DNA from: Parcubacteria group bacterium GW2011_GWA2_51_10
GTDB taxonomy: Bacteria; Patescibacteriota; Minisyncoccia; Phycocordibacterales; UBA2100
Length of the DNA stretch: 33,182 nucleotides
Direction of reading: 5' to 3'
Assembly: GCA_001004265.1 (NCBI GenBank)
Contig: LCQS01000013.1
Location: forward strand, 1-33,182
Each line of letters opens with the position of its first letter. Position 1 is the stretch's first letter. Below, one piece after another: positions 9,241 to 24,500 of this stretch. Under the pieces are notes generated by a model. The model made no database searches. It saw only the letters and a program-made list of their open reading frames with translations, and had not been told where the DNA came from. Both the position numbers and the translations under genes were made by a program.

Positions 9241-9264
9241 TGAACGAATAAGTAGAAGATAGGG

Positions 9265-9303
9265 AAAATACCCCGGTCGCATCTTGTGGCCGGGGTATTT
9301 TCA
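9265..9303 (+). terminator. intrinsic terminator of the RRM gene
   Basis: AAATACCCCGG-N13-CCGGGGTATTTTC is a perfect 11-bp stem ending in a short T run, about 25 nt after the stop codon. Confidence 0.85.
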
Positions 9304-9364
9304 ATGTGGCATTAAAGGATTTTCCACATCATCGTGGCTGCGCGCATCCTGCCCTACTAAATCG

Positions 9365-9373
9365 TGCCATACT
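9365..9373 (+). promoter_or_regulatory. extended -10 of the membrane-protein pair, leaderless configuration
   Basis: TGCCATACT is followed by TAGCGC and then ATG 9380, a 6-nt spacing as at ddl and uvrC. Confidence 0.55.
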
Positions 9374-9379
9374 TAGCGC

Positions 9380-10846: not shown

Positions 10847-10856
10847 CGTCCAGAAA

Positions 10857-10882
10857 AAAACGGGAGCCGAGGCTCCCGTTTT
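10857..10882. terminator. bidirectional terminator between the MFS-like gene and the 122-aa gene
   Basis: AAAACGGGAGC-CGAG-GCTCCCGTTTT has an 11-bp stem with A and T tracts on both sides, so it can act for the plus-strand transporter and the minus-strand small gene that converge here. Confidence 0.85.
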
Positions 10883-11250
10883 CAATCACTCCGCCGCTTG
10901 AACTTTTGCGGCGTTCTGCCGAGAACTGGCGCAAATCTTTCGGGTGGAATCGGTGCCTCGTGGTCAGTGAAAGCGCGATATTGCCGTTCTGCTCTGTTCG
11001 CCTTAATGCGTTTTGACTTCCGTACGCTCTCAGCGCGCAAGTTGCTTTCTCTGATAATAGCAGCTCTGTAGTAGGCGAATTCCACATCCGATAGGTCGAC
11101 GTTGTGTGCTTTCTTCCACTGCTCAAGCATTGCGCTTACACCGTCGCTCATGGATACGAGCGGAAAGTCACGCCGGTGTTGCGCAACCTGCGACGTCAAA
11201 AGCTTGATGTCAGGTCGTAGAGGCGCTGGCCTCTTGATCGTCGTTGCCAT
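10882..11250 (-). CDS. unrecognised protein, 122 aa
   Basis: I do not recognise this protein. It is supported by a strong ribosome binding site (TCTGGAGGGTTGAG-ATG) and a terminator at its stop. The sequence is rich in Arg and Lys, for example residues ~68-92 (ESNLRAESVRKSKRIKANRAERQYR), and ends QKFKRRSD. It is predicted to be soluble and helical in the middle (SDGVSAMLEQWKKAHNVDLSDVEFAYYRAAIIRE). The basic character would suit nucleic-acid binding, but no motif proves it. It heads the first of three small minus-strand genes that follow each other (10.9-11.9 kb). Confidence 0.65.
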   Translation of the reverse strand: MATTIKRPAPLRPDIKLLTSQVAQHRRDFPLVSMSDGVSAMLEQWKKAHNVDLSDVEFAYYRAAIIRESNLRAESVRKSKRIKANRAERQYRAFTDHEAPIPPERFAPVLGRTPQKFKRRSD

Positions 11251-11312
11251 CTCAACCCTCCAGATAAAGATAATCAGTTGCCATTATGCAACAGTGTGTA
11301 AACACTGTGAAG

Positions 11313-11510
11313 CTACTCCGCCTTCTTTTTAATTTCGCTGCCCATGCGCGTTCGACGGCGTAATATGGCTTCCGCCGTTGGATCGAGTTTGCCACTATCC
11401 AACAGTTCTTTATTTTTCTGGGAAATGTTTGGCACACCCACCTCGTGCTCCGGAAGCTGTCTACGCGGTTTATGTTCGTACCGATTTTTTTTAAACTGGT
11501 CGATGCTCAT
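11313..11510 (-). CDS. unrecognised small basic protein, 65 aa
   Basis: This is an unrecognised protein beginning MSIDQFKKNRYEHKPRRQLPEHEVGVPNIS. A moderate ribosome binding site (AAAGAGGGCAACAATCT-ATG) precedes it. KNKELLDSGKLDPTAEAILRRRTRMGSEIKKKAE suggests a C-terminal helix-turn-helix-sized region, too short to classify. It lies 62 bp upstream of the 122-aa gene in the same direction and may be co-transcribed with it. Composition and context match the neighbouring small genes. Confidence 0.55.
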   Translation of the reverse strand: MSIDQFKKNRYEHKPRRQLPEHEVGVPNISQKNKELLDSGKLDPTAEAILRRRTRMGSEIKKKAE

Positions 11511-11567
11511 AGATTGTTGCCCTCTTTCATATCAACAGCCGGAATCTTACAGGATCCTAAGCAAAAA

Positions 11568-11592
11568 AGAAACAGCGCCCATTCGGTAAGGC
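11568..11592 (-). terminator. terminator of the 109-aa gene
   Basis: On the minus strand CGGCGCC-TTACCGAAT-GGGCGCTG (7 bp with one G-U pair) is followed by TTTCTTTTTTGC. It separates the 109-aa gene from the 65-aa gene. Confidence 0.65.
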
Positions 11593-11613
11593 GCCGCTTC
11601 GGAAGTGTTTGGA

Positions 11614-11943
11614 TTACGAGAGTACGTCCAGTACTGCTTTGACACTTATGAGCTCTCGCAGCATCGGCTGGAAATGCATAACTCTCTTGTAGGCGTGGCC
11701 GAAGAAAATCGCCACTTCTCGACTCTCGTCTCGTGAGCAGACGCGTATATCAAGTCGTACTACCCACGTATGCTGCACAACGTCAACGAATATCCTCAGC
11801 GCATTCTTCCGAGGCACTCGCCGCGAGAACACACCACGCAGCGAGCGTCGTTGCATCGGGGTCATTCGTATCTTCGAGCGTATCCCGATAGTGACATCGC
11901 CGGTTGCGTGAGGATAAACAAGAACACCCTCAAAACGTCGCAT
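11614..11943 (-). CDS. unrecognised protein, 109 aa
   Basis: This is an unrecognised protein with an excellent ribosome binding site (ATGAAAGGAGATTTAC-ATG) and a following terminator. It opens MRRFEGVLVYPHATGDVTIGIRSKIRMTPMQRRSLRGVF and contains VVRLDIRVCSRDESREVAIFFGHAYKRVMHF, which alternates in a way that suggests beta strands. No signal, membrane segment or metal motif is visible. It is the first of three consecutive minus-strand small genes with no recognisable homologues, a possible accessory patch between the transporter and yqeY. Confidence 0.62.
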   Translation of the reverse strand: MRRFEGVLVYPHATGDVTIGIRSKIRMTPMQRRSLRGVFSRRVPRKNALRIFVDVVQHTWVVRLDIRVCSRDESREVAIFFGHAYKRVMHFQPMLRELISVKAVLDVLS

Positions 11944-12134
11944 GTAAATCTCCTTTCATCTGTCATTGGTGGAGTGGTTTGGCTGTAGAGCAAAGCTACG
12001 CATTTAATAACACGTAATTAAACTTATAACAAGGTTTCGACAACCTCCTTCTCCACGGCGCCGTCGGCTCCGCCTTTTAGCTGCTTCATCCCGATACCAT
12101 CCTCCTACGGAGGAGCTACGGGGCGGGAAGTGCT
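11944..12134. other. non-coding gap with a short palindrome
   Basis: This 191-bp gap holds the start signals of the 109-aa gene (AT-rich, with TTATAAG and TTATTAAAT on the minus strand as possible -10 boxes). It also contains the palindrome TCCTCC-TAC-GGAGGA (12100-12114) close to the end of yqeY. I see no gene in it. Confidence 0.5.
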
Positions 12135-12587
12135 TTATGAAAACAATGATTCAATTATTTCTTTTACTGCTGACCCGTCAGCTTGGTTTTTCAATTCTCT
12201 CATCACGGCGCCCATGAGGATGCCAATTTTTGATTTGTCGGTGATGTTCATGCGCGCTTTCACTTCTTTCGCGATCTTTTCGATTTCACCGCGCGACATT
12301 TGCGCTGGCATGTACTCCGCGAGAATTTTGAGCTCCGCTTCTTCCTTTTGCGCGAGATCATCCCGATTGCCTTTTCTGAACTGCTCTATGGAATCTCTGC
12401 GCTGCTTGACAGCTCGTTTGATAACCGCGAGCGCGTCGTCGTCGGAAATTTGCTCGGTCGGCTTCATGCCTTTTCCAACGAGTTCATTCGTGAACGCGGC
12501 GAGAAGTCCACGGAGTGTATTAGTCCGTATCTCGTCTCTCGCCTTCATCGAGCGGGTGAGATCTTCACGGATTTTTTCCGATAACAT
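12135..12587 (-). CDS. yqeY: GatB/YqeY domain protein
   Basis: This 150-residue YqeY-type protein is related to the tRNA-binding tail of the amidotransferase subunit GatB. The family pattern is clear: MLSEKIREDLTRSMKARDEIRTNTLRGLLAAFTNEL at the N-terminus, ALAVIKRAVKQRRDSIEQFRKGNRDDLAQKEEAELKILAEYMP in the middle, and IGILMGAVMRELKNQADGSAVKEII at the end. The role is uncertain; it may act in charged-tRNA quality control. I choose ATG 12587, the start of the conserved region, because TGCTATACT lies 6 nt upstream (leaderless). The longer ORF start at 12668 would run through the rmuC gene on the other strand. Confidence 0.92.
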   Translation of the reverse strand: MLSEKIREDLTRSMKARDEIRTNTLRGLLAAFTNELVGKGMKPTEQISDDDALAVIKRAVKQRRDSIEQFRKGNRDDLAQKEEAELKILAEYMPAQMSRGEIEKIAKEVKARMNITDKSKIGILMGAVMRELKNQADGSAVKEIIESLFS

Positions 12588-12593
12588 CGCAAA

Positions 12594-12611
12594 AGTATAG
12601 CATGATACAAT
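12594..12611. promoter_or_regulatory. overlapping divergent leaderless promoters of yqeY and rmuC
   Basis: The minus strand carries TGC-TATACT (hexamer 12594-12599), 6 nt before the yqeY ATG. The plus strand carries TGA-TACAAT (12606-12611), 7 nt before the rmuC ATG. Only 6 bp separate the two -10 boxes, and 31 bp separate the start codons. The -35 zone of each promoter would fall inside the start of the other gene. Confidence 0.7.
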
Positions 12612-12618
12612 CGCAAAT

Positions 12619-13698
12619 ATGGAGTGGGCTATTGTCGTATTGCTTCTCGCAGTCCTTGCATTTCTCATACTCCTCTACAGGCGCGGACAAAGTACGAAAG
12701 ACGATTCGCAGAGTATGCTTCTTTTGCAGAATCAGATACAGGAATTATCTCGCGGCCTAGATCAGAAGTTAGGGGAGGGAACAACCAGGATGTTCGAGTC
12801 AATGAAAACTCAGTTCGGCGAATCGCAGCGGCTTGCATCTGACATACGCGACCTCGTAGCGAAACAATTAACCGAAGTAGCGCGCGAGCAGACAAAGACC
12901 AATGAAGCGACAACGAGGTTCATGACTATAGCGGAGCAGCTGGCAAACCTAGAGAAAGTACTAAAGCATCAAAAACAACGAGGTAACCTTGGAGAGGCAT
13001 CGCTCGAGCTGATTCTGGGAAATATTCTGCCGCCTGGTTCCTATAAAATGCAGTATGAATTTCCCGGCGGAGAAACTGTAGATGCTGTTGTGGTAACCAA
13101 AGAGGGTGTAATACCGATAGACGCCAAATTTTCTCTAGACAACTACCAGCGGCTCGTGAATGCGATAGACGAAACCCAGCGAGAGGAACTTGAAAAGCAA
13201 TTTAAAAACGACCTAAAGCTTCGTATCGATGAATGCGCAAAGTACGTGCGCCCCAAGGACGGGACGCTCCCTTTTGCGTTCATGTATATTCCGGCTGAAG
13301 CGATCTATTATGACCTGCTTATCAATGAAGTCGGCTCCGTTAAAGTAAATACGCGCAATCTAATCGACTACGCATACAATGAAAAGAAGGTCATCATAGT
13401 CTCGCCGACGACTTTTGCGGCTTATCTTCAATCTGTACTTTATGGATTCAAAGCATTTAAAATTGAAGAAACGGCGAAAGACATCGCAAAAAATGTCGAA
13501 GCGCTCGGGAGACATCTGAAAGCATATGAAGACTACTATAAAAAAATAGGGAATTCGCTTTCAACTACAGTCAACCATTTCAATGCGGGTTCAAGAGAGC
13601 TCGGGAAAATCGATAAAGATGTTTTGAAAATTACCGGAGTCTCCGCCGAATTGGAGACGCCGCTTTTAGATAAGCCCGTACTTGCCCGTGATGAATAG
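12619..13698 (+). CDS. rmuC: RmuC-family DNA recombination protein
   Basis: RmuC proteins limit inversions at short inverted repeats and carry a PD-(D/E)XK-like nuclease fold. This one is 359 residues. A membrane anchor (residues ~4-20, AIVVLLLAVLAFLILLY) is followed by a coiled coil (~35-118). The conserved domain then contains QRGNLGEASLELILGNILPPGSYKMQYEF, VDAVVVTKEGVIPIDAKFSLDNYQRL (acidic and lysine residues of the nuclease-like core) and VSPTTFAAYLQSV. The start follows a -10 box by 7 nt. It is of interest beside the many inverted-repeat elements of this window, but that link is inference. Confidence 0.93.
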   Translation: MEWAIVVLLLAVLAFLILLYRRGQSTKDDSQSMLLLQNQIQELSRGLDQKLGEGTTRMFESMKTQFGESQRLASDIRDLVAKQLTEVAREQTKTNEATTRFMTIAEQLANLEKVLKHQKQRGNLGEASLELILGNILPPGSYKMQYEFPGGETVDAVVVTKEGVIPIDAKFSLDNYQRLVNAIDETQREELEKQFKNDLKLRIDECAKYVRPKDGTLPFAFMYIPAEAIYYDLLINEVGSVKVNTRNLIDYAYNEKKVIIVSPTTFAAYLQSVLYGFKAFKIEETAKDIAKNVEALGRHLKAYEDYYKKIGNSLSTTVNHFNAGSRELGKIDKDVLKITGVSAELETPLLDKPVLARDE

Positions 13699-13726
13699 AG
13701 ATTGTATAGTGCTGACTTCATATCGT

Positions 13727-14044
13727 ATGGCGAAAATAGCGATTATCGAGACCGGGGGGAAGCAATATCTTGTCACACAGGATACCGTTTTGAATGTTGA
13801 AAAGATTTCAGATTCGGAAAAGGCGGGATCAAAGATAACTTTTGATAAGGTTCTGCTGACAGACGATGGAAACGAAACTAAAGTTGGCTCTCCTTATGTA
13901 GAGGGAGCAAAGGTTTCTGCGGAGCTGATTGAGCAGGGGAAGGCCGACAAGGTGACTGTCATTCGATATCGCCAAAAAAGCCGCTACTTTAAGAAAAGAG
14001 GACACAGACAGCCATATACAAAGATTAGAATCACGCAGGTATAA
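13727..14044 (+). CDS. rplU: 50S ribosomal protein L21
   Basis: bL21 binds 23S rRNA early in large-subunit assembly. The protein is 105 residues from MAKIAIIETGGKQYLVTQ to KIRITQV, with the family hallmarks GGKQY near the N-terminus and KVTVIRYRQKSRYFKKRGHRQPYTKIRI at the C-terminus. The start at 13727 fits the family; the ORF-track start at 13682 would add 15 residues overlapping the end of rmuC. TATAGT (13705-13710) lies 16 nt upstream. rpmA, its usual partner, does not follow; a small membrane protein does. Confidence 0.95.
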   Translation: MAKIAIIETGGKQYLVTQDTVLNVEKISDSEKAGSKITFDKVLLTDDGNETKVGSPYVEGAKVSAELIEQGKADKVTVIRYRQKSRYFKKRGHRQPYTKIRITQV

Positions 14045-14070
14045 TTTTTTTCACAAGCCGAATTCTGCTA

Positions 14071-14087
14071 GCCGTGCTAGCATATTG
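14071..14087 (+). promoter_or_regulatory. short palindrome upstream of the 55-aa gene
   Basis: TGCTAGC-CGT-GCTAGCA is a perfect 7-bp inverted repeat with a 3-nt loop, between rplU and the small gene. It may be an operator or a weak terminator of rplU. Confidence 0.4.
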
Positions 14088-14114
14088 GTTCACCAACTAG
14101 AAAGTGGAGTGTTC

Positions 14115-14282
14115 ATGAACTGGACGGCCATATCCATGGGGGCCATAGGTGGAGCTTGTGCACAGAACATAACGCTAAATTGGCTCGGTGCCAGTGTTCC
14201 TGCTGTGATCTTTGCAGCTCTGATGTTATGCGGAGTCGCGGGATTCGTTTCCTGGGCGCTGAGCCTACCCTCAAATCCGTGA
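14115..14282 (+). CDS. unrecognised small membrane protein, 55 aa
   Basis: The ATG at 14115 follows a ribosome binding site (AAGTGGAGTGTTC-ATG), so I prefer it to the ORF-track start at 14085. The 55 residues contain two hydrophobic stretches (TAISMGAIGGACAQNI and VPAVIFAALMLCGVAGFVSWAL) and end SLPSNP. It is probably a small inner-membrane protein of one or two helices. A strong hairpin follows its stop codon. I cannot assign a function. Confidence 0.55.
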   Translation: MNWTAISMGAIGGACAQNITLNWLGASVPAVIFAALMLCGVAGFVSWALSLPSNP

Positions 14283-14290
14283 CGACAAAG

Positions 14291-14318
14291 GGCCGCGAGC
14301 TGTTTCTAGCTCGCGGCC
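14291..14318. terminator. hairpin between the converging 55-aa gene and recR
   Basis: GGCCGCGAGCT-GTTTCT-AGCTCGCGGCC is a perfect 11-bp stem in the 38-bp gap between two converging genes and could terminate both. It lacks a long T tract on either side. Confidence 0.7.
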
Positions 14319-14320
14319 GA

Positions 14321-14938
14321 CTACTTTCTGCCCGCGAGGGCGTTTTTTATGGTATCAGGATCGGCGTACTCGAGTTCACTTCCGGTCGAAAGGCCGCGGC
14401 CGAGCGATGTGATTGCGAATTTAGATTCTTTTGATAGCGGGGCAAGTTCTTCGCGAAGTCGCACGGCAGTGGCATCACCCTCTGGATTCGCCGGAAGTGC
14501 CAGAATTATTTCGCGCAATCCATTCCTTGCTCGAGCAGGTATTGATGAAAGCAACTCGCGCATCCGCAAGTGATTTGTTTTCTCGGACGCGAGTGAAATT
14601 GTGCCCCCGAGGACGAAGTAGCGCCCTCGATACGTATGCGATCTCTCAAGAGCGTTAAGATCGGCATTGCTCGCAACGATTGCCAGAAGTTTTGCGTCGC
14701 GATCTTTGTCCGCGCAAATAGTACAAACTGGGGTGGCGCTCTTTTTTAATGAGGCAAAAAAGCGCATGCACTCCGAACACCTCTCGACTGCCCCCGATAG
14801 TTCCTCAATAGTTTTCGCGAGCTCGCGGCGTAGAGCGGAGCCACCCCGAAGAAGATACTGCACGAAGCGCTCCGCCTGCCGGGGCCCAATGCCTGGAAAT
14901 TTCTCGAATAGGGAAGCGAGGCGCTCTAGAGAATCCAT
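14321..14938 (-). CDS. recR: recombination protein RecR
   Basis: RecR works with RecO (and RecF) to load RecA at gaps. The features are a helix-hairpin-helix (FPGIGPRQAERFVQYLL, near the N-terminus), a C4 zinc finger (CSECMRFF...CTICAD) and a Toprim domain (LLAIVASNADLNALERSHTYRGRYFVLGGTISL... EIILALPANPEGDATAVRL). At ~205 residues it has normal length. I choose MDSLERL at 14938. The alternative ATG at 14953 (MAHHLMDS) falls inside an inverted repeat and adds residues the family lacks. dnaB follows upstream on the same strand across a repeat-filled 114-bp gap. Confidence 0.93.
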   Translation of the reverse strand: MDSLERLASLFEKFPGIGPRQAERFVQYLLRGGSALRRELAKTIEELSGAVERCSECMRFFASLKKSATPVCTICADKDRDAKLLAIVASNADLNALERSHTYRGRYFVLGGTISLASEKTNHLRMRELLSSIPARARNGLREIILALPANPEGDATAVRLREELAPLSKESKFAITSLGRGLSTGSELEYADPDTIKNALAGRK

Positions 14939-14949
14939 AAGATGATGTG

Positions 14950-15044
14950 CCAATCTACGAATCTATTCCAATCTACAAATAATTACGAATAATCATCCCG
15001 CGTATTTGTAGACATTCGTAGCATTCGCATCATTCGCAGATTGG
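14950..15044. repeat. imperfect inverted-repeat element between recR and dnaB
   Basis: The outer arms are CCAATCTACGAAT (14950-14962) and ATTCGCAGATTGG (15032-15044), with one mismatch. The inner arms are TCTACAAAT (14972-14980) and ATTTGTAGA (15004-15012). The inside is made of ATTCGTAG/ATTCGCA words. The whole 95-bp block can fold on itself. Confidence 0.6.
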
Positions 15045-15051
15045 GACGTTT

Positions 15052-15936
15052 TTAGAAGGGGGCGGTGTCTTCCATCTGCGTCTCGGGAGTAAAATCGCCG
15101 AATTCGCTCTTCTCTATGGACAGGAACGTCGTTTTCTCCTCGTCGAATCGCAGATCGACTTTTCCGATCGGGCCGTTGCGATGTTTTTCAACCATGATCT
15201 CCGCAATGCCGGGTCTATCGGAATTCTCATTCATCTTATCGTCGCGGTGTATAAACATCACGACATCCGCATCTTGCTCCAGGCTTCCGCTGTCGCGAAG
15301 ATCGGAAAGCCGCGGCTTGCCGCGGCGGCTCTCGATGGCACGCGAGAGCTGGGAGAGCGCCATGACGGGAACGTCGAGTTCGCGCGCCATTGCTTTAAGA
15401 GATCGCGATATTTCTGTTACTTGCTGAACCATCGAGTCGCCGCCCCGCGAGTGCAACGGCGTGATGAGCTGCAAATAATCTACAATGATGAGTCCGAGTC
15501 CTTTCTCCATCTTGAGGCGACGGGCAACGGAGCGCATCGAAAGCACCGTAGAGCTCGGCCGGTCGTCAATGTAGATCGGCGCCTCTGACAGCGCGGCCAT
15601 GCCGTTATGCAGTCGCTCGTACTCTTCGTCTTTGGAAATTTTTCCTGTCCGAAGGCGCCACGAATTCACGCCCGCCTGTGCCGCGAGCATTCTATCGACA
15701 AGTTGCTGGGAGCTCATTTCGAGAGAAAAAATGCCGACCGACGTGCCGTGCTTGATTGCGGTTTGCCGCGCGATATCCAAAGCGAGCGCGGTCTTTCCCA
15801 CGGAGGGTCTCGCCGCGAGAAGGATGAGATCGGACTTCTGCAGACCCGCGAGTAGATTGTCGAGCTGACTGAATCCCGTTGGTACGCCGCGAATCTCGCC
15901 CCTGGAAACCGAGCTCTCCGATGGTCGCCGCCGCAT
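15052..15936 (-). CDS. dnaB: replicative DNA helicase DnaB, C-terminal helicase part
   Basis: This frame holds the RecA-like motor of DnaB: VPTGFSQLDNLLAGLQKSDLILLAARPSVGKTALALDIA (Walker A), FSLEMSSQQLVDRMLA, GLGLIIVDYLQL (Walker B), RELDVPVMALSQLSRAIESR, and LRDSGSLEQDADVVMFIHRDD (arginine-finger region). The order and length are normal for the domain. The N-terminal domain lies in another frame (15692-16291). The two meet near 15895-15910 at GGTTTCCAGGGGCGAG, and about 50-60 residues of the usual linker (the helix region after ISELAY up to the GVPTGF motif) are missing. I give the ATG at 15936 as the nearest possible separate start; the ORF is open to 16014. Confidence 0.85.
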   Translation of the reverse strand: MRRRPSESSVSRGEIRGVPTGFSQLDNLLAGLQKSDLILLAARPSVGKTALALDIARQTAIKHGTSVGIFSLEMSSQQLVDRMLAAQAGVNSWRLRTGKISKDEEYERLHNGMAALSEAPIYIDDRPSSTVLSMRSVARRLKMEKGLGLIIVDYLQLITPLHSRGGDSMVQQVTEISRSLKAMARELDVPVMALSQLSRAIESRRGKPRLSDLRDSGSLEQDADVVMFIHRDDKMNENSDRPGIAEIMVEKHRNGPIGKVDLRFDEEKTTFLSIEKSEFGDFTPETQMEDTAPF

Positions 15937-16291
15937 CAATGAGTGAACGCAGCACGAACTTTGACTGCACGATATGCGCATAATGTCGGGCGCTCCCGGG
16001 AGAAGCCGCGGCACCCGCGAGCTCCGACAAGAAGCCCCCGCCGCCGATGTCGGCGAGTTGCTTGCGCTCTTTCAGTTTGCCCGCGACGGTAATAACATCG
16101 ATAGGCTCACTCTTTGCATAAAGCGAGAGCATGGCATCGAAAATAGTTCGGTGTTTGCCAGCGTAGAAAGAATCGATAGAGACCACGTCGGCGACCTCAT
16201 ACATCGCATTTTGGTTGAGCATAAGAGCTCCGAGGAGCGCGTGCTCCATTTCGATATCTTGCGGAGGAACGCGTATGGTTTTTGCTGACAT
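15692..16291 (-). CDS. dnaB: replicative DNA helicase DnaB, N-terminal part (frameshifted tail)
   Basis: The first ~134 residues are a good DnaB N-terminal domain: VPPQDIEMEHALLGALMLNQNAMYEVADVVSIDSFY, HRTIFDAMLSLY, PIDVITVAGKL and SPGSARHYAHIVQSKFVLRSLIDAAATIGELGF. After GELGFQ the frame leaves the family and runs to a stop as arginine-rich junk (RDSRRTNGIQSARQS...) over the helicase domain. The start has TAGAAT (extended TGC) 7 nt upstream, a leaderless arrangement. DnaB is normally essential, so either the gene is functional as two pieces, or a frameshift occurs, or the sequence carries a deletion of about 160-180 bp plus a frame change. Confidence 0.8.
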   Translation of the reverse strand: MSAKTIRVPPQDIEMEHALLGALMLNQNAMYEVADVVSIDSFYAGKHRTIFDAMLSLYAKSEPIDVITVAGKLKERKQLADIGGGGFLSELAGAAASPGSARHYAHIVQSKFVLRSLIDAAATIGELGFQGRDSRRTNGIQSARQSTRGSAEVRSHPSRGETLRGKDRARFGYRAANRNQARHVGRHFFSRNELPATCR

Positions 16292-16298
16292 TGAGGCG

Positions 16299-16307
16299 AT
16301 TCTAGCA
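16299..16307 (-). promoter_or_regulatory. extended -10 of dnaB, leaderless configuration
   Basis: On the minus strand TGC-TAGAAT is followed by CGCCTCA and ATG 16291, a 7-nt spacing. Confidence 0.65.
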
Positions 16308-16462
16308 TGGCGCGTTTCGACCTATTTTTGAGATCATTTTTAACTCTTGGTACTAATCTGTGGATACGAAGCGCGCTCTGTTGCGATGCATTTGACTGTG
16401 TGGTATTCTTTTGCTACAACTTACAACACAGTAGCAATAATAGTCAACTTTCTATCCACATT

Positions 16463-17485
16463 ATGATCACATTTTCGCCGAGAGCCGTTACAAAAGACCT
16501 CCTTGGGGAGCTTCCCGACCGATCCCGCAAAGTCTTGACCGACCGATTCGGCCTCGGGCCAAAGGCTATCGAACGCACGCTGGATGCCATCGGCAAGGAG
16601 TATGGCATCACGCGCGAGCGCGTGCGGCAAATCGAAACGCACGGGCTTTCGCTTGTGCGCGAATCAAAAAGTTACGCGGCTCATATGGACGAGCTCGATG
16701 AGCTGAAGCGCGCGCTCCATTCGCTCGGCGCAGTCCTGGCGCACCACACGATCCTTGAGCAGCTACCGGTTACGCCGGCGGATCATAATCACCTCGTATT
16801 CATACTGACTGTGGGTCACCATTTTGATATGCGGCGCGAGGATCCGGATTTTCATACGCGGTGGCACACAGACGAACAGATCGCCGACCAAGTCGAGCGT
16901 GCTCTCTCAACCGTATATGAGTCAATTGATGTCAACCGCCTTACACCGGAAGAAGAATTTTTACAGATCTTTGCGAAGCATCTGAAGCAAGAAGGAATAA
17001 AGAATCGTCCGAACGACGTCTTAATCCGCTATCTTTCCATTTCAAAACGCCTCGGTAAGAATCCTCTCGGCGAATGGGGCCGGATGGAATCGCCCCACGT
17101 GCGAATAAAAAACACGCGCGACTTCGCGTATCTGACGTTGAAGCGACACGGCTCGCCAATGCACTTTACGGAAGTCGCGAAGGGAATCGAAAAATTGTTC
17201 GGGCGCAAGGCGCACCCCGCGACGACGCACAATGAGCTCATCAAGGATAGCCGCTTCGTGCTCGTGGGGCGCGGTCTCTATGCGCTCTCGGAGTGGGGAT
17301 ACCAACCAGGTATCGTCCGCGATGTGATTCGCGAGATCCTTCGCCGCGAGGGACCGCTTTCGCGCGAAGACATTACGAACCGCGTGAAGCGCGAGCCCTA
17401 CGTGAAGGATGCGACCATTGCCGCAAAGCTGCAGGGCAGCGGTTTTGTGCGCCTTCCCGACGGCAGATTCAGCGTCACAAAATAA
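16463..17485 (+). CDS. sigma-70 region 4-like and HARE-HTH domain protein
   Basis: The start at 16463 (MITFSPRAV) removes an implausible 52-residue extension; the protein is then 340 residues. Residues ~8-65 resemble sigma-70 region 4: LPDRSRKVLTDRFGLG...TLDAIGKEYGITRERVRQIETHGLSLVRE, the helix-turn-helix that reads -35 elements. No region 2 (the -10-melting part) is visible. Residues ~215-280 (FAYLTLKRHGSPMHFTEVAKGIEKLFGRKAHPATTHNELIKDSRFVLVGRGLYALSEWG) fit a HARE-HTH domain, known from the RNA polymerase delta subunit and from ASXL proteins. A further winged helix (IVRDVIREILRREGPLSREDITNRV) ends it. It is probably a transcription factor that touches RNA polymerase, but the target is unknown. 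Confidence 0.75.
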   Translation: MITFSPRAVTKDLLGELPDRSRKVLTDRFGLGPKAIERTLDAIGKEYGITRERVRQIETHGLSLVRESKSYAAHMDELDELKRALHSLGAVLAHHTILEQLPVTPADHNHLVFILTVGHHFDMRREDPDFHTRWHTDEQIADQVERALSTVYESIDVNRLTPEEEFLQIFAKHLKQEGIKNRPNDVLIRYLSISKRLGKNPLGEWGRMESPHVRIKNTRDFAYLTLKRHGSPMHFTEVAKGIEKLFGRKAHPATTHNELIKDSRFVLVGRGLYALSEWGYQPGIVRDVIREILRREGPLSREDITNRVKREPYVKDATIAAKLQGSGFVRLPDGRFSVTK

Positions 17486-17560: not shown

Positions 17561-18967
17561 ATGGCGATGCCCAAGAGTGAAATCCAAGAGTTCTGGCATG
17601 TTCTTACATCGTTTGACTGGGAGACTTGGACTGACTGGGTATTCGACTGGGGAATTTCACGCGGCGCATTTCTCGGGCTCATTTATGTCGCGCTTCTCGC
17701 AGTCTTGAGCATCCAGATCCCCAATTTTTGGCTCTTCGCTCTTACGTGGATCGCGGGCACTGCGCCTGTATGGCTTCCTGTTGCCATGATAATAACAGCA
17801 TACAGGGTTTGGATATGGTATGCGCGATCGCATTACCTTGCATCCAAAGTGGATCCGGTTCTCTTGGAGATGAAAATCCCGCGAGAGATCACGAAATCTC
17901 CGCGCGCGATGGAAACTGCTCTCACGGCATTCTGGATGGGGTCCCATGAGACCACGTTTATCCATCGATTCGTCAAGGGTCAGGTTCGACCTTTCTACTC
18001 GTTTGAAATCGCTTCTTTTGGCGGCGAGTTGCATTTTTATGTCTGGGTCTTTAAGGCGTACCAAAAATCTGTGGAATCGAATCTTTATTCACAGTACCCG
18101 GACATTGAACTTGTCGAGGTGGAGGATTACTCGCAGAAGTTTGTTTTCGATGAGGATAAATACACATGTTACTGCACGGATTGGCGACTCGAAGGTTCGG
18201 GCATAGATCCGAGGGATCCGCGGATTAACGCGTATCCATTCAAGACGTACATTGATCTCGAGCTCGATAAGGATCCCAAGGAAGAATTGAAGGTGGATCC
18301 ATTGGCGACGGTTTTGGAATTCATGGCGAGCATAAAACCGACGGAGCAGATGTGGATACAGATTATTTTCACCGCGGCATACAGGACGGGTGTCATAAAT
18401 CGAAGAGACACCGCATGGAAGCATCTCGTAGAAACAGAAGTGCAGAAAATCCGACTGGAATCAGCGGTGTTACCAGAGAAACTGCCCGAGGATATTTCCG
18501 AACGGCGCCTAGCGCAGGCGCGGCCCCGCGCGACATGGAAGCAGACAGAGCAGGTGCAGACGATGGAGCGCAACTTGGCAAAGCATCCATTCGACGTAGG
18601 TGTGCGCGGCATCATCATAGCTCCAACAGAGGATTTCGATAGGACGTTCTGGAGTTTGCGCTGGATTTGGCGGCCGTTTGCAAATCCGCAATACATGACG
18701 CAGCTTCGCCCACGTCGCTGGCATAATCCATTTGATTACCCGTGGCAGGATTTTCATGACATCCGCTGGAATCTCGTGACGAGGCGTTTTCTCGATGCCT
18801 ACAGGCGTCGCGCATTCTTCTACACGCCGTGGGAAACTCCTTACAACATCATGACGAGCGAAATGCTCGCGACAATTTTCCACCCGCCGAGTCGCACGAT
18901 CGCGACGCCTGGCATAACTAGAATTCCCGCAACGAAAGCAGAGCCGCCGGCAAATTTGCCGAGGTAA
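17561..18967 (+). CDS. membrane protein resembling the N-terminal module of CPR type IV secretion coupling-like proteins
   Basis: This 468-residue protein has two N-terminal membrane helices (~36-55 AFLGLIYVALLAVLSIQIPNF; ~60-85 ALTWIAGTAPVWLPVAMIITAYRVWIWY). The soluble part carries VLLEMKIPREITKSPRAMETALTAFW, RPFYSFEIASFGGELHFYVWVFKAYQKSVESNLYSQYPDIELVEVEDYS and EQMWIQIIFTAAYRTG. I associate this module with the region before the ATPase in CPR coupling or VirB4-like proteins. No Walker motifs are present. An unusual W/R/F-rich C-terminus (RWIWRPFANPQYMTQLRPRRWHNPFDYPWQDFHDIRWN) follows. It stands alone before mltG. The assignment rests on remembered pattern only. Confidence 0.45.
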   Translation: MAMPKSEIQEFWHVLTSFDWETWTDWVFDWGISRGAFLGLIYVALLAVLSIQIPNFWLFALTWIAGTAPVWLPVAMIITAYRVWIWYARSHYLASKVDPVLLEMKIPREITKSPRAMETALTAFWMGSHETTFIHRFVKGQVRPFYSFEIASFGGELHFYVWVFKAYQKSVESNLYSQYPDIELVEVEDYSQKFVFDEDKYTCYCTDWRLEGSGIDPRDPRINAYPFKTYIDLELDKDPKEELKVDPLATVLEFMASIKPTEQMWIQIIFTAAYRTGVINRRDTAWKHLVETEVQKIRLESAVLPEKLPEDISERRLAQARPRATWKQTEQVQTMERNLAKHPFDVGVRGIIIAPTEDFDRTFWSLRWIWRPFANPQYMTQLRPRRWHNPFDYPWQDFHDIRWNLVTRRFLDAYRRRAFFYTPWETPYNIMTSEMLATIFHPPSRTIATPGITRIPATKAEPPANLPR

Positions 18968-19007: not shown

Positions 19008-20048
19008 ATGGATATAAAAACTGCATTCGAAAAGTTCCTCGAGCGCGGATTCGAATTCTACGAACGCGTCCTCGCGAAATTCTCCGTACGGTGGCGCGAG
19101 CATGCTAATCGCCGCACTATAATCACACTCGTTCTTTTTGGGGCCATCGCACTCTACGCGTATCTATCGATCATCCGCCCACCGGATAATTTTCCGATTG
19201 CCATTCTGGTGACAGTGGAAGAAAACATGCCTCTCACGGCAGTTGCCGAGATGCTCGAAGAGGGTGGCGTCGTTCGCTCGAGTTTCGCACTTCGCTTTGT
19301 GGTTGCAGCGACGGGGCATGAACAGAATGTGCGTGCTGGCGACTATTTATTCAAAGAGCCGAAAGATCTCTTCAGCGTTGCGCGCGCCATATCGATTGGT
19401 GCATTCGGCCTCGAGCCGCTGCGCATCCGCATTCCAGAAGGCGCGACGACAAAGGACATGGAGAAGATTTTTTCTTTGCAGCTGCAGCGCTTCGATGAGG
19501 AGAATTTTCGCGTGCTCGCGTTCCCGCTCGAAGGTTTTCTCTTTCCGGATACATATTTCTTTCTGCCGAACGCCACTGAGGAGCTCGTCGTCCGCACGAT
19601 GAGACAAAATTTTGACACCCACATTGTGGAGCTCGAGGAGGAGATTGCCGCATTCGGTAGACCTCTTCCAGAGGTTGTTACGATGGCGTCCCTTCTTGAG
19701 AAGGAGGCGAGGAAGTATGAGGATCGTCGAAAGATCGCGGGTGTTTTGTGGAACCGGCTAGACAAAGGCATGCTCCTTCAAGTCGACGCGGCATTTCTCT
19801 ACACGCTCGGCAGAACAACATATGACTTGAGCACGGAAGATCTTGCGAGCGACACACCGTACAATACATACCGGTATAAAGGACTGCCGCCGGGGCCGAT
19901 AGGGAGCCCAAGCATTGATTCATTGCGTGCAGCAATTGATCCGGCGAAGCATAGCTACCTTTATTATCTTGCAGACCGCAAAGGAACAACGTACTACAGC
20001 AAAACGTATGAAGAGCACTTGCAGAAGAAACGGCGGTACATTGACTAG
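19008..20048 (+). CDS. mltG: endolytic murein transglycosylase MltG
   Basis: MltG cleaves nascent glycan strands at the membrane and may set their length. At 346 residues it has normal size. One membrane helix is at ~38-56 (IITLVLFGAIALYAYLSII) and a LysM-like part follows (VTVEENMPLTAVAEMLEEGGVVRSSFALRF). The YceG domain contains RIPEGATTKDMEKIF, LEGFLFPDTYFF, VVTMASLLEKEARKYEDRRKIAGVLWNRL (catalytic glutamate in LLEKEA), LQVDAAFLYTLG, YNTYRYKGLPPGPIGSPSIDSLRAAIDP and FSKTYEEHL-like YYSKTYEEH. A GATACA box lies 6 nt before the ATG. Confidence 0.95.
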   Translation: MDIKTAFEKFLERGFEFYERVLAKFSVRWREHANRRTIITLVLFGAIALYAYLSIIRPPDNFPIAILVTVEENMPLTAVAEMLEEGGVVRSSFALRFVVAATGHEQNVRAGDYLFKEPKDLFSVARAISIGAFGLEPLRIRIPEGATTKDMEKIFSLQLQRFDEENFRVLAFPLEGFLFPDTYFFLPNATEELVVRTMRQNFDTHIVELEEEIAAFGRPLPEVVTMASLLEKEARKYEDRRKIAGVLWNRLDKGMLLQVDAAFLYTLGRTTYDLSTEDLASDTPYNTYRYKGLPPGPIGSPSIDSLRAAIDPAKHSYLYYLADRKGTTYYSKTYEEHLQKKRRYID

Positions 20049-20150: not shown

Positions 20151-21203
20151 ATGAAAAAGGTATTTGTCGGGTTATCAGGAGGCGTTGACAGTGCCGTTTC
20201 TGCAGCGCTTCTCAAAGAACGCGGATACGATGTCACTGGCGTGTTCATAAAAATCTGGCAGCCAGAATTTATCGAGTGCTCATGGCGCGAGGATCGACTG
20301 GACGCGATGCGTGTTGCTGTTGCGCTCGGAGTTCCGTTTCGCGAGATTGACCTTTCGGAGGAGTATAAGCGGGGCATTGTCGAGAAAATGATAGCCGGTT
20401 ATGCGCGCGGCATCACGCCAAACCCGGACGTGCTTTGCAATAAGGCAATTAAGTTCGGGAGTTTTCTTAGTTACGCTCTTTCGGAAGGAGCGGACTATAT
20501 TGCGACGGGCCACTATGCACGCGTGCGGCAACGGAATGGTGCATTCGAACTTTTGCGCGGCATCGATCGTGCGAAGGATCAATCATACTTTCTCTACATG
20601 CTCGGGCAGGCTGAACTTTCAAAAACTCTTTTTCCATTGGGCGACATCACAAAAAAGGAGACGCGCCATCTCGCGCAGCAGTTTGATTTGCCAGTTGCGA
20701 ACAAAAGAGATAGTCAGGGTCTGTGTTTTGTCGGTGAGGTAACTATTCCGGAATTTCTCTCGCGTTTTCTTCCCCCTTCGGAAGGAGTCGTATTCGATAT
20801 GGCCGGCGAACGTATCGGAACGCACGAAGGCGCAGCATTTCTTACGATCGGCCAGCGGCATGGATTTAGAATATCGATGCCCGGCCACGGGAAGCCGCAC
20901 TACGTGGTTTCCGTTGATACTACAAATAACAGCATTACTGTTTCTGAAAGACGAGAAGACGCAGCAAAAACTGACTGCGATATAGAGGATACGCATTTTA
21001 TAGGCAATTCGATTCCCATGCCATTCGATGCGTCAGCGCAAGTTCGTTACCATGGCGAGGAAATGCCTGTCGTGATCGAATCTTCAGATGGAACGGTACG
21101 AGCGCGCTTCACCGCGCCGATCATACTTTCTCCCGGGCAGTCGCTCGTTCTCTATCGCGAGGACGTGTGCATTGGCGGAGGCATTATAGAAAGTTTACAG
21201 TGA
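20151..21203 (+). CDS. mnmA: tRNA 2-thiouridine synthase MnmA
   Basis: MnmA adds sulfur at C2 of wobble U34 in tRNA-Lys, -Glu and -Gln. At 350 residues it has normal length. The PP-loop is SGGVDS (residues 9-14). The two catalytic cysteines lie in TPNPDVLCNKAIKF and RDSQGLCFVGE. DYIATGHYARV and KDQSYFLYML follow the family order, and the C-terminal beta-barrel ends VLYREDVCIGGGII. After the stop codon there is a short run of GGTTACAGTCAACAGT repeats before the next gene. Confidence 0.95.
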   Translation: MKKVFVGLSGGVDSAVSAALLKERGYDVTGVFIKIWQPEFIECSWREDRLDAMRVAVALGVPFREIDLSEEYKRGIVEKMIAGYARGITPNPDVLCNKAIKFGSFLSYALSEGADYIATGHYARVRQRNGAFELLRGIDRAKDQSYFLYMLGQAELSKTLFPLGDITKKETRHLAQQFDLPVANKRDSQGLCFVGEVTIPEFLSRFLPPSEGVVFDMAGERIGTHEGAAFLTIGQRHGFRISMPGHGKPHYVVSVDTTNNSITVSERREDAAKTDCDIEDTHFIGNSIPMPFDASAQVRYHGEEMPVVIESSDGTVRARFTAPIILSPGQSLVLYREDVCIGGGIIESLQ

Positions 21204-21240: not shown

Positions 21241-22131
21241 ATGCGATACAATGTCAACGTGTCGCTTCCAACACAACAGCGCGCGTACTCGATTCCGCAT
21301 CAGGGGCAGAGCACGGTGCTCGTAACGAAGGCGGATGGAGAGCGGGAGCCGTTCGATCCATCGAAACTAGATACATCTCTCGAACGAGCGGGCGCGAGTG
21401 GAAGTATGCGCTCGCGCGTGATCTCGCACATTTTGGGCGAGATCCGGGACGGCATGACTACAGAGGAAATATATCGGCGAGCGTATGAAATATTGCGTGC
21501 GGAAGAATCATCGCCCGTCGCTGCCCGATACTCCATAAAACGCGCCGTCTTCGAGCTCGGGCCATCCGGCTTCCCATTTGAGCAATTCTTAGCGGAGATT
21601 TTACGTGCGCACGGATGGAGCGCCCGCACGGGCGTCGCACTCATGGGGCGTTGCGCACCGCATGAAGTGGATGTACTTGCCGAAAAGGATGGCAAGCGCG
21701 TCGGCATCGAAGCGAAATTTCATAATGACCGCGGTGGCAAGACTGATATTAAGGACGCACTCTACGTCCACGCGCGCTATGAGGACTTACGGAATACATC
21801 CGATGCGTCTTCCCGCGTGGACGAGGGATGGCTCGTCACGAATACCGTGTTTACACAAAATGCGATCCGCTATGCGCACTGCTCCAACCTTACATTGCTT
21901 GGATGGGATTACCCACACAAGCACAACCTTCTCTCCATGATTGAGGAGGCGCGCGTGCATCCGCTCACGTGCCTCACGACGCTCTCCGACGGCGAAAAAA
22001 GGCGGCTTCTCGATAATAAAATCGTGCTCTGCAAAAGCGTACAGACGCGGCATTTGCTAGACGAATATGGCGTGAAGCCCGCGCGAATCGAGAGCGTTCT
22101 TGACGAAGCGCAACGCCTCTGCGGAGTCTAG
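21241..22131 (+). CDS. ATP-cone domain fused to an Mrr-like restriction endonuclease domain
   Basis: Residues ~24-104 form an ATP-cone (VLVTKADGEREPFDPSKLDTSLERAG...TTEEIYRRAYEIL...ARYSIKRAVFELGPSGFPFEQFLAEILRAHGW), a nucleotide-sensing module best known from ribonucleotide reductase and NrdR. Residues ~112-230 resemble an Mrr-type PD-(D/E)XK nuclease: CAPHEVDVLAEKDGKRVGIEAKFHNDRGG supplies the acidic residues and ExK. The ATG at 21241 overlaps a -10 box (TACAAT); a GTG at 21259 lies 7 nt after that box and may be the true, leaderless start. No methyltransferase is near, so it is unlikely to be half of a classical restriction system. A nucleotide-controlled DNA repair or defence nuclease is possible. 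Confidence 0.8.
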   Translation: MRYNVNVSLPTQQRAYSIPHQGQSTVLVTKADGEREPFDPSKLDTSLERAGASGSMRSRVISHILGEIRDGMTTEEIYRRAYEILRAEESSPVAARYSIKRAVFELGPSGFPFEQFLAEILRAHGWSARTGVALMGRCAPHEVDVLAEKDGKRVGIEAKFHNDRGGKTDIKDALYVHARYEDLRNTSDASSRVDEGWLVTNTVFTQNAIRYAHCSNLTLLGWDYPHKHNLLSMIEEARVHPLTCLTTLSDGEKRRLLDNKIVLCKSVQTRHLLDEYGVKPARIESVLDEAQRLCGV

Positions 22132-22215: not shown

Positions 22216-22686
22216 ATGCCTACTCCTGCTGACTTCATTGATCCAACGGTCATTCTGTTTGCGAAGCTCGTGCTGGCTGTTTTTCTCGGCGGTGTAATAG
22301 GGACTGAACGCGCAGTTGTAGCGCATCAGGCGGCGGGTACACGCACATTCGGTCTCGTTTCTCTCGGCGCTTGTCTTTTTATTCTCACAGGAAATTTTGT
22401 CGATACGGCATACCTCGGCATTGTCAATTTCGATCCGGCGCGCATTTCTGCAGCGGTGGTCATGGGGATCGGCTTTCTCGGCGGAGGTCTCATTATTTTT
22501 AAAGGAGATGCACTTCACGGCGTTACGACTGCCGCAGGATTATGGCTCGCGGCCGGCGTCGGCATTGCCGTTGGCTTTGGGATGTATGCTGTTGCTATAT
22601 TCGCCACATTTCTTGCGCTCTTGGTTTTAATGGGCATGTGGTACTTCGAAAATCGCTTTAAGAGCTGGTTTGCTGATCATAGCTAG
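22216..22686 (+). CDS. MgtC/SapB-family membrane protein
   Basis: At 156 residues with four to five hydrophobic segments, this fits the MgtC/SapB family: FAKLVLAVFLGGVIGTERAVVAHQAAGTRTFGLVSLGACLF (the conserved GxxIGxER...GLRT-like motif) and RISAAVVMGIGFLGGGLIIFKGDALHGVTTAAGLWLAAGVGIAVGFG. The short form without the ACT-like C-terminal domain is common. Members influence Mg2+ or acid stress or inhibit ATP synthase; the role here is unknown. It follows the ATP-cone nuclease by 84 bp. Confidence 0.9.
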   Translation: MPTPADFIDPTVILFAKLVLAVFLGGVIGTERAVVAHQAAGTRTFGLVSLGACLFILTGNFVDTAYLGIVNFDPARISAAVVMGIGFLGGGLIIFKGDALHGVTTAAGLWLAAGVGIAVGFGMYAVAIFATFLALLVLMGMWYFENRFKSWFADHS

Positions 22687-22773: not shown

Positions 22774-23574
22774 ATGCCTCCGAAATTGTATGCAAAACGT
22801 ACGCGCAATATATTTGATCCCGCGTCGTCGGAAATTTTTCGCGTAAGCCGCAGCAAGATCGATTTATTTCATGAGTGCCCACGCTGTTTTTATTTGGATG
22901 TGCGTCTCGGCATTGCGCGCCCGTCATTTCCGGCGTTTACGTTGAATAACGCCGTAGATGAGCTCATGAAGCGGGAATTTGATATGCATCGTGCGAAAGG
23001 TGAGCCGCATCCTTTAATGAAGGCATACAGGATTGATGCCGTCCCGCTTCACGACCCAAGGATGGAAGAATGGCGAGATGCTCTGCGCAAGGGCATCCAG
23101 TATCATCACAAACCCACGGGGTTCATTTTCCGGGGGGGAGTGGACGATATCTGGGTCAATACCGAGGGTGAACTAATTGTTGTAGATTACAAGGCGACGA
23201 GCAAAAAGGACGAAGTTACGATAGATGGATATTGGCAGAGAGGGTACAAGCGGCAAGTAGAAATTTATCAATGGCTTCTGCGCGGTATCGGCGAAAAAGT
23301 CTCTCCCACCGCCTATTTCGTCTATGTGAACGGGAAATCTGATGCTAAGGCGTTTGACGGCAAGCTTGAGTTTGATGTCACAATTCTTCCGCACGAGGGA
23401 GACACATCCTGGATAGAGCCGGTTGTGATGAGATTGTCGGAATGCCTGCGCGCCAGCGGCGTTCCGCAGCCTGCAGAAACATGTGAGTATTGTCGATACC
23501 GAGAAGCGGCAGGTAAGGAGTTACTCGCACTCACCAAAAGCTCGAAGAAAAGTAGCGGCACTTTGGGGATTTGA
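22774..23574 (+). CDS. PD-(D/E)XK nuclease-family protein with paired cysteines (RecB/Cas4-like)
   Basis: This 266-residue protein shows the RecB-type nuclease signature: RVSRSKIDLFHECPRCFYLDVRLGI at the N-terminus, FRGGVDDIWVNTEGELIVVDYKATSKKDE (GVDD and the DYK of motifs II and III) and GYKRQVEIYQWLLRG (the QxxxY motif). CxxC pairs at the N-terminus (CPRC) and near the C-terminus (CEYCRYRE) could bind a metal or an iron-sulfur cluster, as in Cas4 and AddB, although the spacing differs. There is no helicase domain and no CRISPR array or cas gene in the window. It is therefore best read as a stand-alone exonuclease-like protein. A leaderless promoter precedes it. Confidence 0.82.
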   Translation: MPPKLYAKRTRNIFDPASSEIFRVSRSKIDLFHECPRCFYLDVRLGIARPSFPAFTLNNAVDELMKREFDMHRAKGEPHPLMKAYRIDAVPLHDPRMEEWRDALRKGIQYHHKPTGFIFRGGVDDIWVNTEGELIVVDYKATSKKDEVTIDGYWQRGYKRQVEIYQWLLRGIGEKVSPTAYFVYVNGKSDAKAFDGKLEFDVTILPHEGDTSWIEPVVMRLSECLRASGVPQPAETCEYCRYREAAGKELLALTKSSKKSSGTLGI

Positions 23575-23610: not shown

Positions 23611-23743
23611 ACCCCGTTAGAAGTTCTCGGCAGAAAAATTTTATTAAAATTTTTCTGCTCTAGATTAACGGAGATATGGCAAAAAAGCTGATTATGTCTC
23701 GGACAAATGATTATAATCAAATAAGTCAAACTTCTAACGGGGT
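23611..23743. repeat. terminal-inverted-repeat element E4 spanning the start of ung
   Basis: The arms ACCCCGTTAGAAGTT (23611-23625) and AACTTCTAACGGGGT (23729-23743) are perfect 15-bp inverted repeats. Inside is a perfect 13-bp hairpin GCAGAAAAATTTT-ATT-AAAATTTTTCTGC (23630-23658) and, near the right end, TCGGACAAATGATTATAATCAAA, similar to the inside of element E1. The first 22 codons of ung lie within it. Confidence 0.75.
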
Positions 23744-24500
23744 AAAAATAGAAAGCTCGTGGAAAGCGGCACTCAAAGATGAGTTCGGACGGGACTATTT
23801 CAAGGAATTGCGCGAGTTCGTCAAGGGCGAATACCAGCACGCCATTGTGTACCCGCCGCCGAAGAATATTTTTCGTGCGTTCGAGCTATGTCCTGTCGGC
23901 AGCGTCAAAGTCGTGATACTCGGTCAGGATCCCTACCATGGTACGGGGCAGGCGAACGGACTTTGTTTTGCCGTCAATGAAGGTGTTCCTCTGCCGCCGT
24001 CGCTCCAAAATATATTCAAGGAGTTGGAGAGTGATTTGGGCGAATCGGTGGAAAATAAAAAGGGCGACCGAGCGCAGAGCGAGGAAGTCCTGAGGCCAGC
24101 AGGCCGAACGGGCGACCGAGCGCAGAGTGAGAAAGTCCTGAGGCCAGCAGGCCGAAGGGGCGATCTTGAGCGTTGGGCAAGGCAAGGCGTTCTGCTTCTC
24201 AATGCCACGTTGACCGTGCGCGCCGGAAGCGCCGGCTCGCATCAAGGCAAGGGCTGGGAAGAGTTCTCCGATGCAGTCATACGAAAGCTTTCCGACGAAC
24301 GCGAGCATCTTGTTTTCATTCTCTGGGGTAATTATGCGAAAGCCAAGGGCGCCCATATAGACAGGAGTAAGCACCTGGTCATCGAATCGGCGCACCCCTC
24401 GCCTTTCTCTGCCGCCAACGGCTTTTTCGGTTCAAAACCCTTCAGCAAAACGAATGAGTACCTAGTGACCCACAACAAGAGGCCCATTGATTGGCTGTAG
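23676..24500 (+). CDS. ung: uracil-DNA glycosylase with an inserted repeat peptide
   Basis: Family-1 UDG removes uracil from DNA. VVILGQDPYHGTGQANGLCFAV carries the catalytic aspartate (GQDPYH, residues 83-88), then PPSLQNIFKELESDLG, WARQGVLLLNATLTVRAG, HLVFILWGNYAKAKG and IESAHPSPFSAANGFFGSKPFSKTN (HPSP with the catalytic histidine). Compared with E. coli Ung there is an insertion of ~40 residues (about 122-161) before DLERWARQG, made by two 48-bp copies of the R1 repeat (GDRAQSEEVLRPAGRT, GDRAQSEKVLRPAGRR). The first ~22 residues lie in inverted-repeat element E4, and no other start codon is available before the conserved part. The ATG at 23676 has GGAG close upstream; 23694 is an alternative. 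Confidence 0.95.
   Translation: MAKKLIMSRTNDYNQISQTSNGVKIESSWKAALKDEFGRDYFKELREFVKGEYQHAIVYPPPKNIFRAFELCPVGSVKVVILGQDPYHGTGQANGLCFAVNEGVPLPPSLQNIFKELESDLGESVENKKGDRAQSEEVLRPAGRTGDRAQSEKVLRPAGRRGDLERWARQGVLLLNATLTVRAGSAGSHQGKGWEEFSDAVIRKLSDEREHLVFILWGNYAKAKGAHIDRSKHLVIESAHPSPFSAANGFFGSKPFSKTNEYLVTHNKRPIDWL
24062..24157 (+). repeat. R1 structured repeat, tandem copies C1 and C2, in frame inside ung
   Basis: The period is exactly 48 bp (16 codons). Each unit reads GGGCGACCGAGCGCAGAG, then GAGGAAGTCCTGAG (or a close variant), then hairpin GGCC-AGCA-GGCC (24094-24105 and 24142-24153), then GAA. The two units differ at a few positions, so the array is not an exact recent duplication. Confidence 0.85.

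What the first reader, a model, noticed from the sequence alone, without database searches (positions are those of the whole stretch)
21241..22131. Nucleotide-sensing ATP-cone fused to an Mrr-like nuclease without a methylase
The ATP-cone normally tunes ribonucleotide reductase by ATP or dATP. Here it precedes a PD-(D/E)XK domain (HEVDVLAEK...GIEAKF). This could be a nuclease switched by the nucleotide pool, useful in phage defence or in a nucleotide-scavenging symbiont. It stands beside MgtC, a second nuclease and ung.
Basis: partly seen in the sequence, partly recalled or inferred. Interest (0 to 1): 0.62.

Follow-up and report, generated by a model that had tools for sequence, protein, structure and literature searches.

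The report
ATP-cone-gated housekeeping nuclease
This bacterial gene joins a nucleotide-sensing domain to an intact DNA-cutting domain; it is an old, vertically inherited housekeeping gene in its lineage, next to DNA-repair genes, rather than a phage-defence gene, and whether nucleotides really switch the nuclease has, as far as I could find, never been tested.

Summary
ORF 21241-22131 (296 aa) carries a Pfam ATP-cone (residues 28-101) and an Mrr_cat PD-(D/E)XK nuclease (110-220), plus a C-terminal helical domain shared with the solved but uncharacterised archaeal protein AF1548 (1Y88). The AlphaFold model has pLDDT 90.5. E114, D144, E157 and K159 are invariant in 90 of 90 distinct homologues, and most ATP-cone contacts are conserved (K30, E36, F38, K42; the NrdR Arg51 equivalent is Ala).

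The defence reading is not supported. The gene is in 33 of 36 genomes of its genus and 19 of 24 sampled families of its order. It is vertically inherited and sits in a fixed block (mltG-mnmA-nuclease-mgtC-second PD-(D/E)XK nuclease-ung-alaS). It is absent from searched phages and viral contigs, and defence genes are not enriched around it. The second nuclease lies within 2.5 kb downstream in 29 of 40 carriers of the order, across 15 families.

In Bacteroidota and Chlamydiota, distant members sit with a beta-CASP RNase, a nucleotide phosphorylase, PRPP synthetase and stress genes.

Best reading: a DNA-processing or repair endonuclease with an adenine-nucleotide gate. Gate and substrate are inferred. 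New member of a known, functionally untested architecture.

The parts
21241..22131 (+). ATP-cone / Mrr_cat nuclease gene, 296 aa
   Evidence: Open frame; Pfam ATP-cone and Mrr_cat over cut-off; 1Y88 E 8e-28
21322..21543 (+). ATP-cone domain, residues 28-101; K30, E36, F38, K42 align with NrdR K50, E56, F58, K62; NrdR R51 is A31
   Evidence: Pfam; conservation K30 87/90, E36 71/90, F38 83/90, K42 87/90; NrdR roles from PMC9110341
21568..21900 (+). PD-(D/E)XK (Mrr_cat) nuclease domain, residues 110-220
   Evidence: Pfam; E114, D144, E157, K159 90/90; Foldseek 1Y88 E 7e-16
21928..22128 (+). C-terminal helical domain, residues 230-296, shared with AF1548
   Evidence: 1Y88 alignment runs to residue 295; helices in the model
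22216..22686 (+). mgtC-like gene, between the two nucleases in most of the genus and some other order genomes
   Evidence: Pfam MgtC E 9e-31; cluster c6
22774..23574 (+). Second PD-(D/E)XK nuclease (PDDEXK_1, Cas4/RecB-like), the conserved downstream partner
   Evidence: Pfam E 4e-14; within 2.5 kb downstream, same strand, in 29 of 40 carriers of the order, 15 families
23676..24500 (+). ung, uracil-DNA glycosylase
   Evidence: Pfam UDG E 3e-15
20151..21203 (+). mnmA, conserved upstream neighbour
   Evidence: Pfam; cluster c2
19008..20048 (+). mltG (YceG), conserved upstream neighbour
   Evidence: Pfam; cluster c4

Best explanation
A chromosomal, vertically inherited endonuclease of genome maintenance in the order of Candidatus Kaiserbacteria. 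The AF1548-type PD-(D/E)XK domain with its C-terminal domain cuts DNA with metal ions (inferred from intact catalytic residues and fold). The N-terminal ATP-cone binds adenine nucleotides and, as in RNR and NrdR, probably changes oligomeric state with ATP/ADP/dATP and so permits or blocks cutting (inferred). The ATP-cone runs straight into the helix that carries invariant E114, which gives a short mechanical path from sensor to active site (inferred from the model's secondary structure). In this lineage it most likely works with the co-directional second PD-(D/E)XK nuclease in DNA processing or repair. Shown: domains, conservation, distribution, inheritance, gene pairing. Inferred: substrate, gating direction, pathway.
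For: Catalytic residues intact 90/90 and ATP-cone contacts conserved. Confident model, pLDDT 90.5, pTM 0.84. Foldseek: 1Y88 first (E 7e-16), then MspJI and the Pyrococcus repair endonuclease 2vld, with EndoMS, RNR and NrdR weaker. Near-universal in genus and order; in the tree the genus is one clade at 100/100 and the order at 95/86. Median pairwise identity in the genus 69%, against 57% for mnmA and 55% for mltG. Downstream PD-(D/E)XK partner in 15 families, with gaps of 24-108 bp in five of them. ung in the same block, and an Ogt-like gene (c12) in 15 genus loci. uvrA, uvrC, rmuC and dnaB elsewhere in the window. None in 50,697 phage records or in viral contigs.
Against: No biochemistry exists for any member that I could find. 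Neighbourhood is circumstantial: mnmA, mltG and alaS are not repair genes, and reduced genomes may keep old gene order for other reasons. In Bacteroidota the same family keeps different company. The residue equivalent to NrdR R51 is alanine, so nucleotide binding could be altered. In the order 9 of 40 carriers lack the second nuclease by a clear match and 3 of 9 non-carriers keep it, so neither depends strictly on the other.
Confidence: 0.5

Rival explanations
1. Energy- or nucleotide-stress nuclease: the ATP-cone senses a fall in ATP (or the ATP/dATP balance) and the nuclease degrades nucleic acid, so that nucleotides can be recycled together with a beta-CASP RNase, an NMP or nucleoside phosphorylase and PRPP synthetase.
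For: beta-CASP RNase immediately downstream, same strand, in 11 of 22 non-redundant Bacteroidota/Chlamydiota loci, with archaeal-type phosphorylase and PRPP synthetase in four; neighbours include USP, Hsp20, PPK2 and P-type ATPases.
Against: In the window's genus and order no archaeal-type phosphorylase over the cut-off and, in the own genome, no beta-CASP domain; there the gene sits in a housekeeping block.
Confidence: 0.27
2. Anti-phage or anti-plasmid restriction nuclease (type IV-like, Mrr), switched on when infection shifts the dNTP pool.
For: Mrr_cat domain; structural similarity to the modification-dependent enzymes MspJI and AspBHI; some Bacteroidota copies are on plasmids or near-identical islands.
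Against: Near-universal and vertical in its order; conserved housekeeping synteny; each of 14 PADLOC families matches only one of 137 neighbours; Mrr N-terminal domain not detected.
Confidence: 0.1
3. A nucleotide-responsive DNA-binding regulator or structural protein in which cutting is unimportant, for instance a stand-in for NrdR, which is missing from the order.
For: NrdR (TIGR00244) over cut-off in none of the genus and order genomes searched.
Against: Catalytic residues invariant; NrdR is missing also from order members without this gene, and outside the class many genomes have both.
Confidence: 0.08

Closest known systems
AF1548 (PDB 1Y88), Archaeoglobus fulgidus; predicted restriction endonuclease in Yooseph et al. 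2007 (PMC1821046)
   Same: Nuclease domain and C-terminal domain over residues 115-295 (E 8e-28); predicted catalytic D38, E51, K53 align with D144, E157, K159
   Different: The solved 199-residue chain has no ATP-cone; no function shown for either
ATP cone domain-containing proteins of Bacteroidota and Chlamydiota (public annotation, e.g. WP_237151220.1, WP_176454803.1)
   Same: Same three-part architecture, about 39-45% identity, same catalytic residues
   Different: Neighbours are RNA and nucleotide catabolism and stress genes
NrdR and class I/III RNR ATP-cones
   Same: ATP-cone motif with K30, E36, F38, K42 equivalents; matched in Foldseek and, weakly, in the profile search
   Different: Output domain is a nuclease; the R51 equivalent is A31
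EndoMS/NucS and MspJI
   Same: PD-(D/E)XK fold neighbours
   Different: Only the nuclease core matches, TM-score about 0.3 or less by query length; other accessory domains

Membership tests
AF1548-like PD-(D/E)XK nucleases | Sequence match over nuclease and C-terminal domains | tested here: met
   E 8e-28 single sequence, 4e-46 profile
AF1548-like PD-(D/E)XK nucleases | Catalytic D, E and K as predicted for AF1548 | tested here: met
   Alignment with residues from PMC1821046
ATP-cone (PF03477) | Score over gathering cut-off | tested here: met
   39.6 against 25.8 bits
ATP-cone (PF03477) | Conserved phosphate and adenine contacts | tested here: inconclusive
   K30, E36, F38, K42 conserved; NrdR R51 equivalent is Ala in 64/90
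ATP-cone (PF03477) | Binds ATP/dATP and changes oligomeric state | not testable with these tools
   Needs biochemistry
Mrr type IV restriction enzyme | Mrr_cat domain | tested here: met
   36.7 against 21 bits
Mrr type IV restriction enzyme | Mrr N-terminal winged-helix domain | tested here: not met
   No such Pfam hit up to E 1; the N-terminus is an ATP-cone
Mrr type IV restriction enzyme | Cleaves methylated DNA | not testable with these tools
   Needs biochemistry
Anti-phage defence gene | Patchy distribution, mobile, beside other defence genes | tested here: not met
   the Bacteroidota branch is patchy and partly mobile but also without recurrent defence neighbours
NrdR | TIGR00244 over cut-off, Zn-ribbon | tested here: not met
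   13.3 against 124.65 bits

The most novel reading that the evidence does not exclude
A housekeeping DNA endonuclease whose cutting is directly switched by the cellular ATP/dATP (or ATP/ADP) balance through an ATP-cone, coupling nucleotide supply to DNA processing. It would be an ATP-cone that controls DNA cleavage rather than dNTP synthesis or RNR transcription, kept across archaea and several bacterial phyla and paired in one order with a RecB/Cas4-like nuclease.
Probability: 0.35. Interest if true: 0.72.

Novelty: new member of a known kind. Interest (0 to 1): 0.47.

Why it matters
If the gate is real, cells have a nuclease that reads the DNA-precursor pool and decides when to cut DNA. The family is widespread (Patescibacteria, Bacteroidota, Chlamydiota, Nanoarchaeota and a phylum reached through an 'Actinobacteria' record), and its only solved relative found here, released in 2004, still carries the title 'unknown function'. 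The conserved pairing with a second nuclease in one order, and with an RNase and nucleotide-recycling enzymes in another phylum, gives two concrete experimental entries.

Tried and rejected
Defence: PADLOC on the protein gave only ZorD's Mrr-like nuclease part (E 4e-4) and a weak PDC-S02 hit; on 137 neighbours no recurrent family. NrdR replacement: NrdR is absent from the order whether or not the gene is present. Nucleotide-recycling operon in this lineage: phosphorylase and beta-CASP not found. Phage or viral origin: none by sequence; viral fold matches are partial, to nuclease or RNR proteins. Literature for an ATP-cone nuclease found no paper on function; the library is limited to open-access PMC. 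Hjc catalytic spacing (E12, D42, E55, K57, from memory, equals the spacing E114, D144, E157, K159 here) could not be confirmed in the library. Co-loss with the second nuclease is weak: 31 of 40 carriers and 3 of 9 non-carriers of the order have it, without correction for relatedness. Promoter and terminator scans around the gene are at chance level.

Full report
WHAT IS THERE. The ORF at 21241-22131 (+) encodes 296 aa. Pfam finds an ATP-cone at residues 28-101 (E 8e-10) and Mrr_cat at 110-220 (E 5e-9), both over the curated cut-off. The best solved relative is AF1548 of Archaeoglobus (1Y88), which matches residues 115-295 but lacks the ATP-cone (E 8e-28 single, 4e-46 profile). That protein was predicted to be a restriction endonuclease with catalytic D38, E51 and K53 (PMC1821046); these align with D144, E157 and K159 here. 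An AlphaFold2 model on 36 sequences has mean pLDDT 90.5 and pTM 0.84, with residues 1-17 disordered. Foldseek returns 1Y88 first, then MspJI, a Pyrococcus repair endonuclease, and more weakly EndoMS, RNR and NrdR. From memory, the C-terminal domain of 1Y88 is classed with helix-hairpin-helix DNA-binding folds; this was not tested here.

CONSERVATION. In 90 distinct homologues from Patescibacteria, Bacteroidota, Chlamydiota and Nanoarchaeota, E114, H141, E142, D144, E157, K159, R179, D182, N201, P241 and T243 are invariant. In NrdR, K50 and R51 bind phosphates, E56 contacts the adenine amino group, F58 lies in the same loop and K62 matters for nucleotide binding (PMC9110341). The equivalents here are K30 (87/90), A31 (Ala in 64/90), E36 (71/90), F38 (83/90) and K42 (87/90). 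Nucleotide binding is therefore likely but not guaranteed. The ATP-cone's last helices (99-104, 106-109) run through a conserved GPSGFPFE linker into the helix that starts with E114; that this couples sensor and active site is inference.

DISTRIBUTION. In the window's genus 33 of 36 genomes (own included; one of them split over two contigs) carry the gene, and 19 of 24 other families sampled from the order (counts exclude hits only to RNR). Phylum-wide, 28 of 287 genomes have a full or near-full match, about a third of them in the genus or order. Elsewhere: 28 of 198 Bacteroidota, 7 of 148 genomes of the phylum of a Nanoarchaeales record, 12 of 199 of the phylum of an 'Actinobacteria' record, all in genomes of 1.3-2.1 Mb. 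No phage record and no viral contig matched; two plasmids did. In the tree the genus is one clade (100/100) and genus plus order another (95/86), with Bacteroidota plus Chlamydiota a third (98/97). In the genus the protein is more conserved than mnmA or mltG (69% median identity against 57% and 55%).

NEIGHBOURHOOD IN THE ORDER. The recurrent block is a sigma-r4/HARE gene, a 470-aa gene, mltG, mnmA, the ATP-cone nuclease, mgtC, the second PD-(D/E)XK nuclease, sometimes an Ogt-like gene, ung, M16 peptidase, alaS. The second nuclease lies downstream on the same strand within 2.5 kb in 29 of 43 carriers compared (29 of 40 in the order), in 15 families; in five families the gap is 24-108 bp. The rest of the window holds uvrA, uvrC, rmuC and dnaB. 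No defence system or methylase was seen among the proteins scanned; the PADLOC hits of UvrA and RmuC are best read as matches to shared ATPase and RmuC folds.

NEIGHBOURHOOD ELSEWHERE. In Bacteroidota and Criblamydia, 11 of 22 non-redundant loci have a beta-CASP RNase directly downstream, overlapping or within 15 bp; four of these add an archaeal-type phosphorylase and PRPP synthetase. Other neighbours are USP, Hsp20, PPK2 and P-type ATPases. One 12.8-kb island is 99.6-99.96% identical in three Bacteroidota records, so this branch probably moves. In the two other phyla neighbours vary and show no recurrent defence pattern by inspection.

INTERPRETATION. I favour a genome-maintenance nuclease with an adenine-nucleotide gate in this lineage (0.5), with a stress or recycling role as main rival (0.27), supported mainly in Bacteroidota. 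Both share the same core mechanism (an ATP-cone controls a nuclease) and differ in substrate and occasion. All functional steps are inferred.

KNOWN OR NEW. The architecture is already visible in public annotation ('ATP cone domain-containing protein') and its domains are in Pfam; I found no functional study in the open-access library. It is a new member of a known kind.

LIMITS. ORF-based neighbour calls are mechanical; genomes are mostly drafts; searches are samples of phyla; the paper library is incomplete; the own genome is 79% complete.

Noticed in passing
window 24062-24163: The ung gene holds an in-frame 48-bp tandem repeat (2.1 copies, 94% match) encoding GDRAQSE(E/K)VLRPAGR; its 16-base core was in none of the 177 loci fetched.
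   Followed up: partly
L036, L037, L038: A 12.8-kb island (cation P-type ATPase, ATP-cone nuclease, beta-CASP RNase, phosphorylase, PRPP synthetase, efflux genes) is 99.6-99.96% identical in three Bacteroidota records, which suggests recent transfer or MAG contamination.
   Followed up: partly
L104:8834-10189 and L113:5234-6625: The beta-CASP RNase beside the Bacteroidota/Chlamydiota ATP-cone nuclease scores best to the type VII CRISPR Cas14 model (405 and 364 bits, cut-off 800), above its score to aCPSF1; CRISPR genes were not looked for systematically there.
   Followed up: no
genus and order of the window: NrdR is missing from all searched genomes of the order; the ATP-cone nuclease and RNR are the only ATP-cone matches in the own genome.
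   Followed up: partly
window 1349-17485: DNA replication and repair genes gather in this window: uvrA, uvrC, rmuC, dnaB and a sigma-r4/HARE protein.
   Followed up: no
window 17561-18967: A 468-aa conserved protein of the block (cluster c3) has no significant Pfam match although it is found in 27 genus loci.
   Followed up: no
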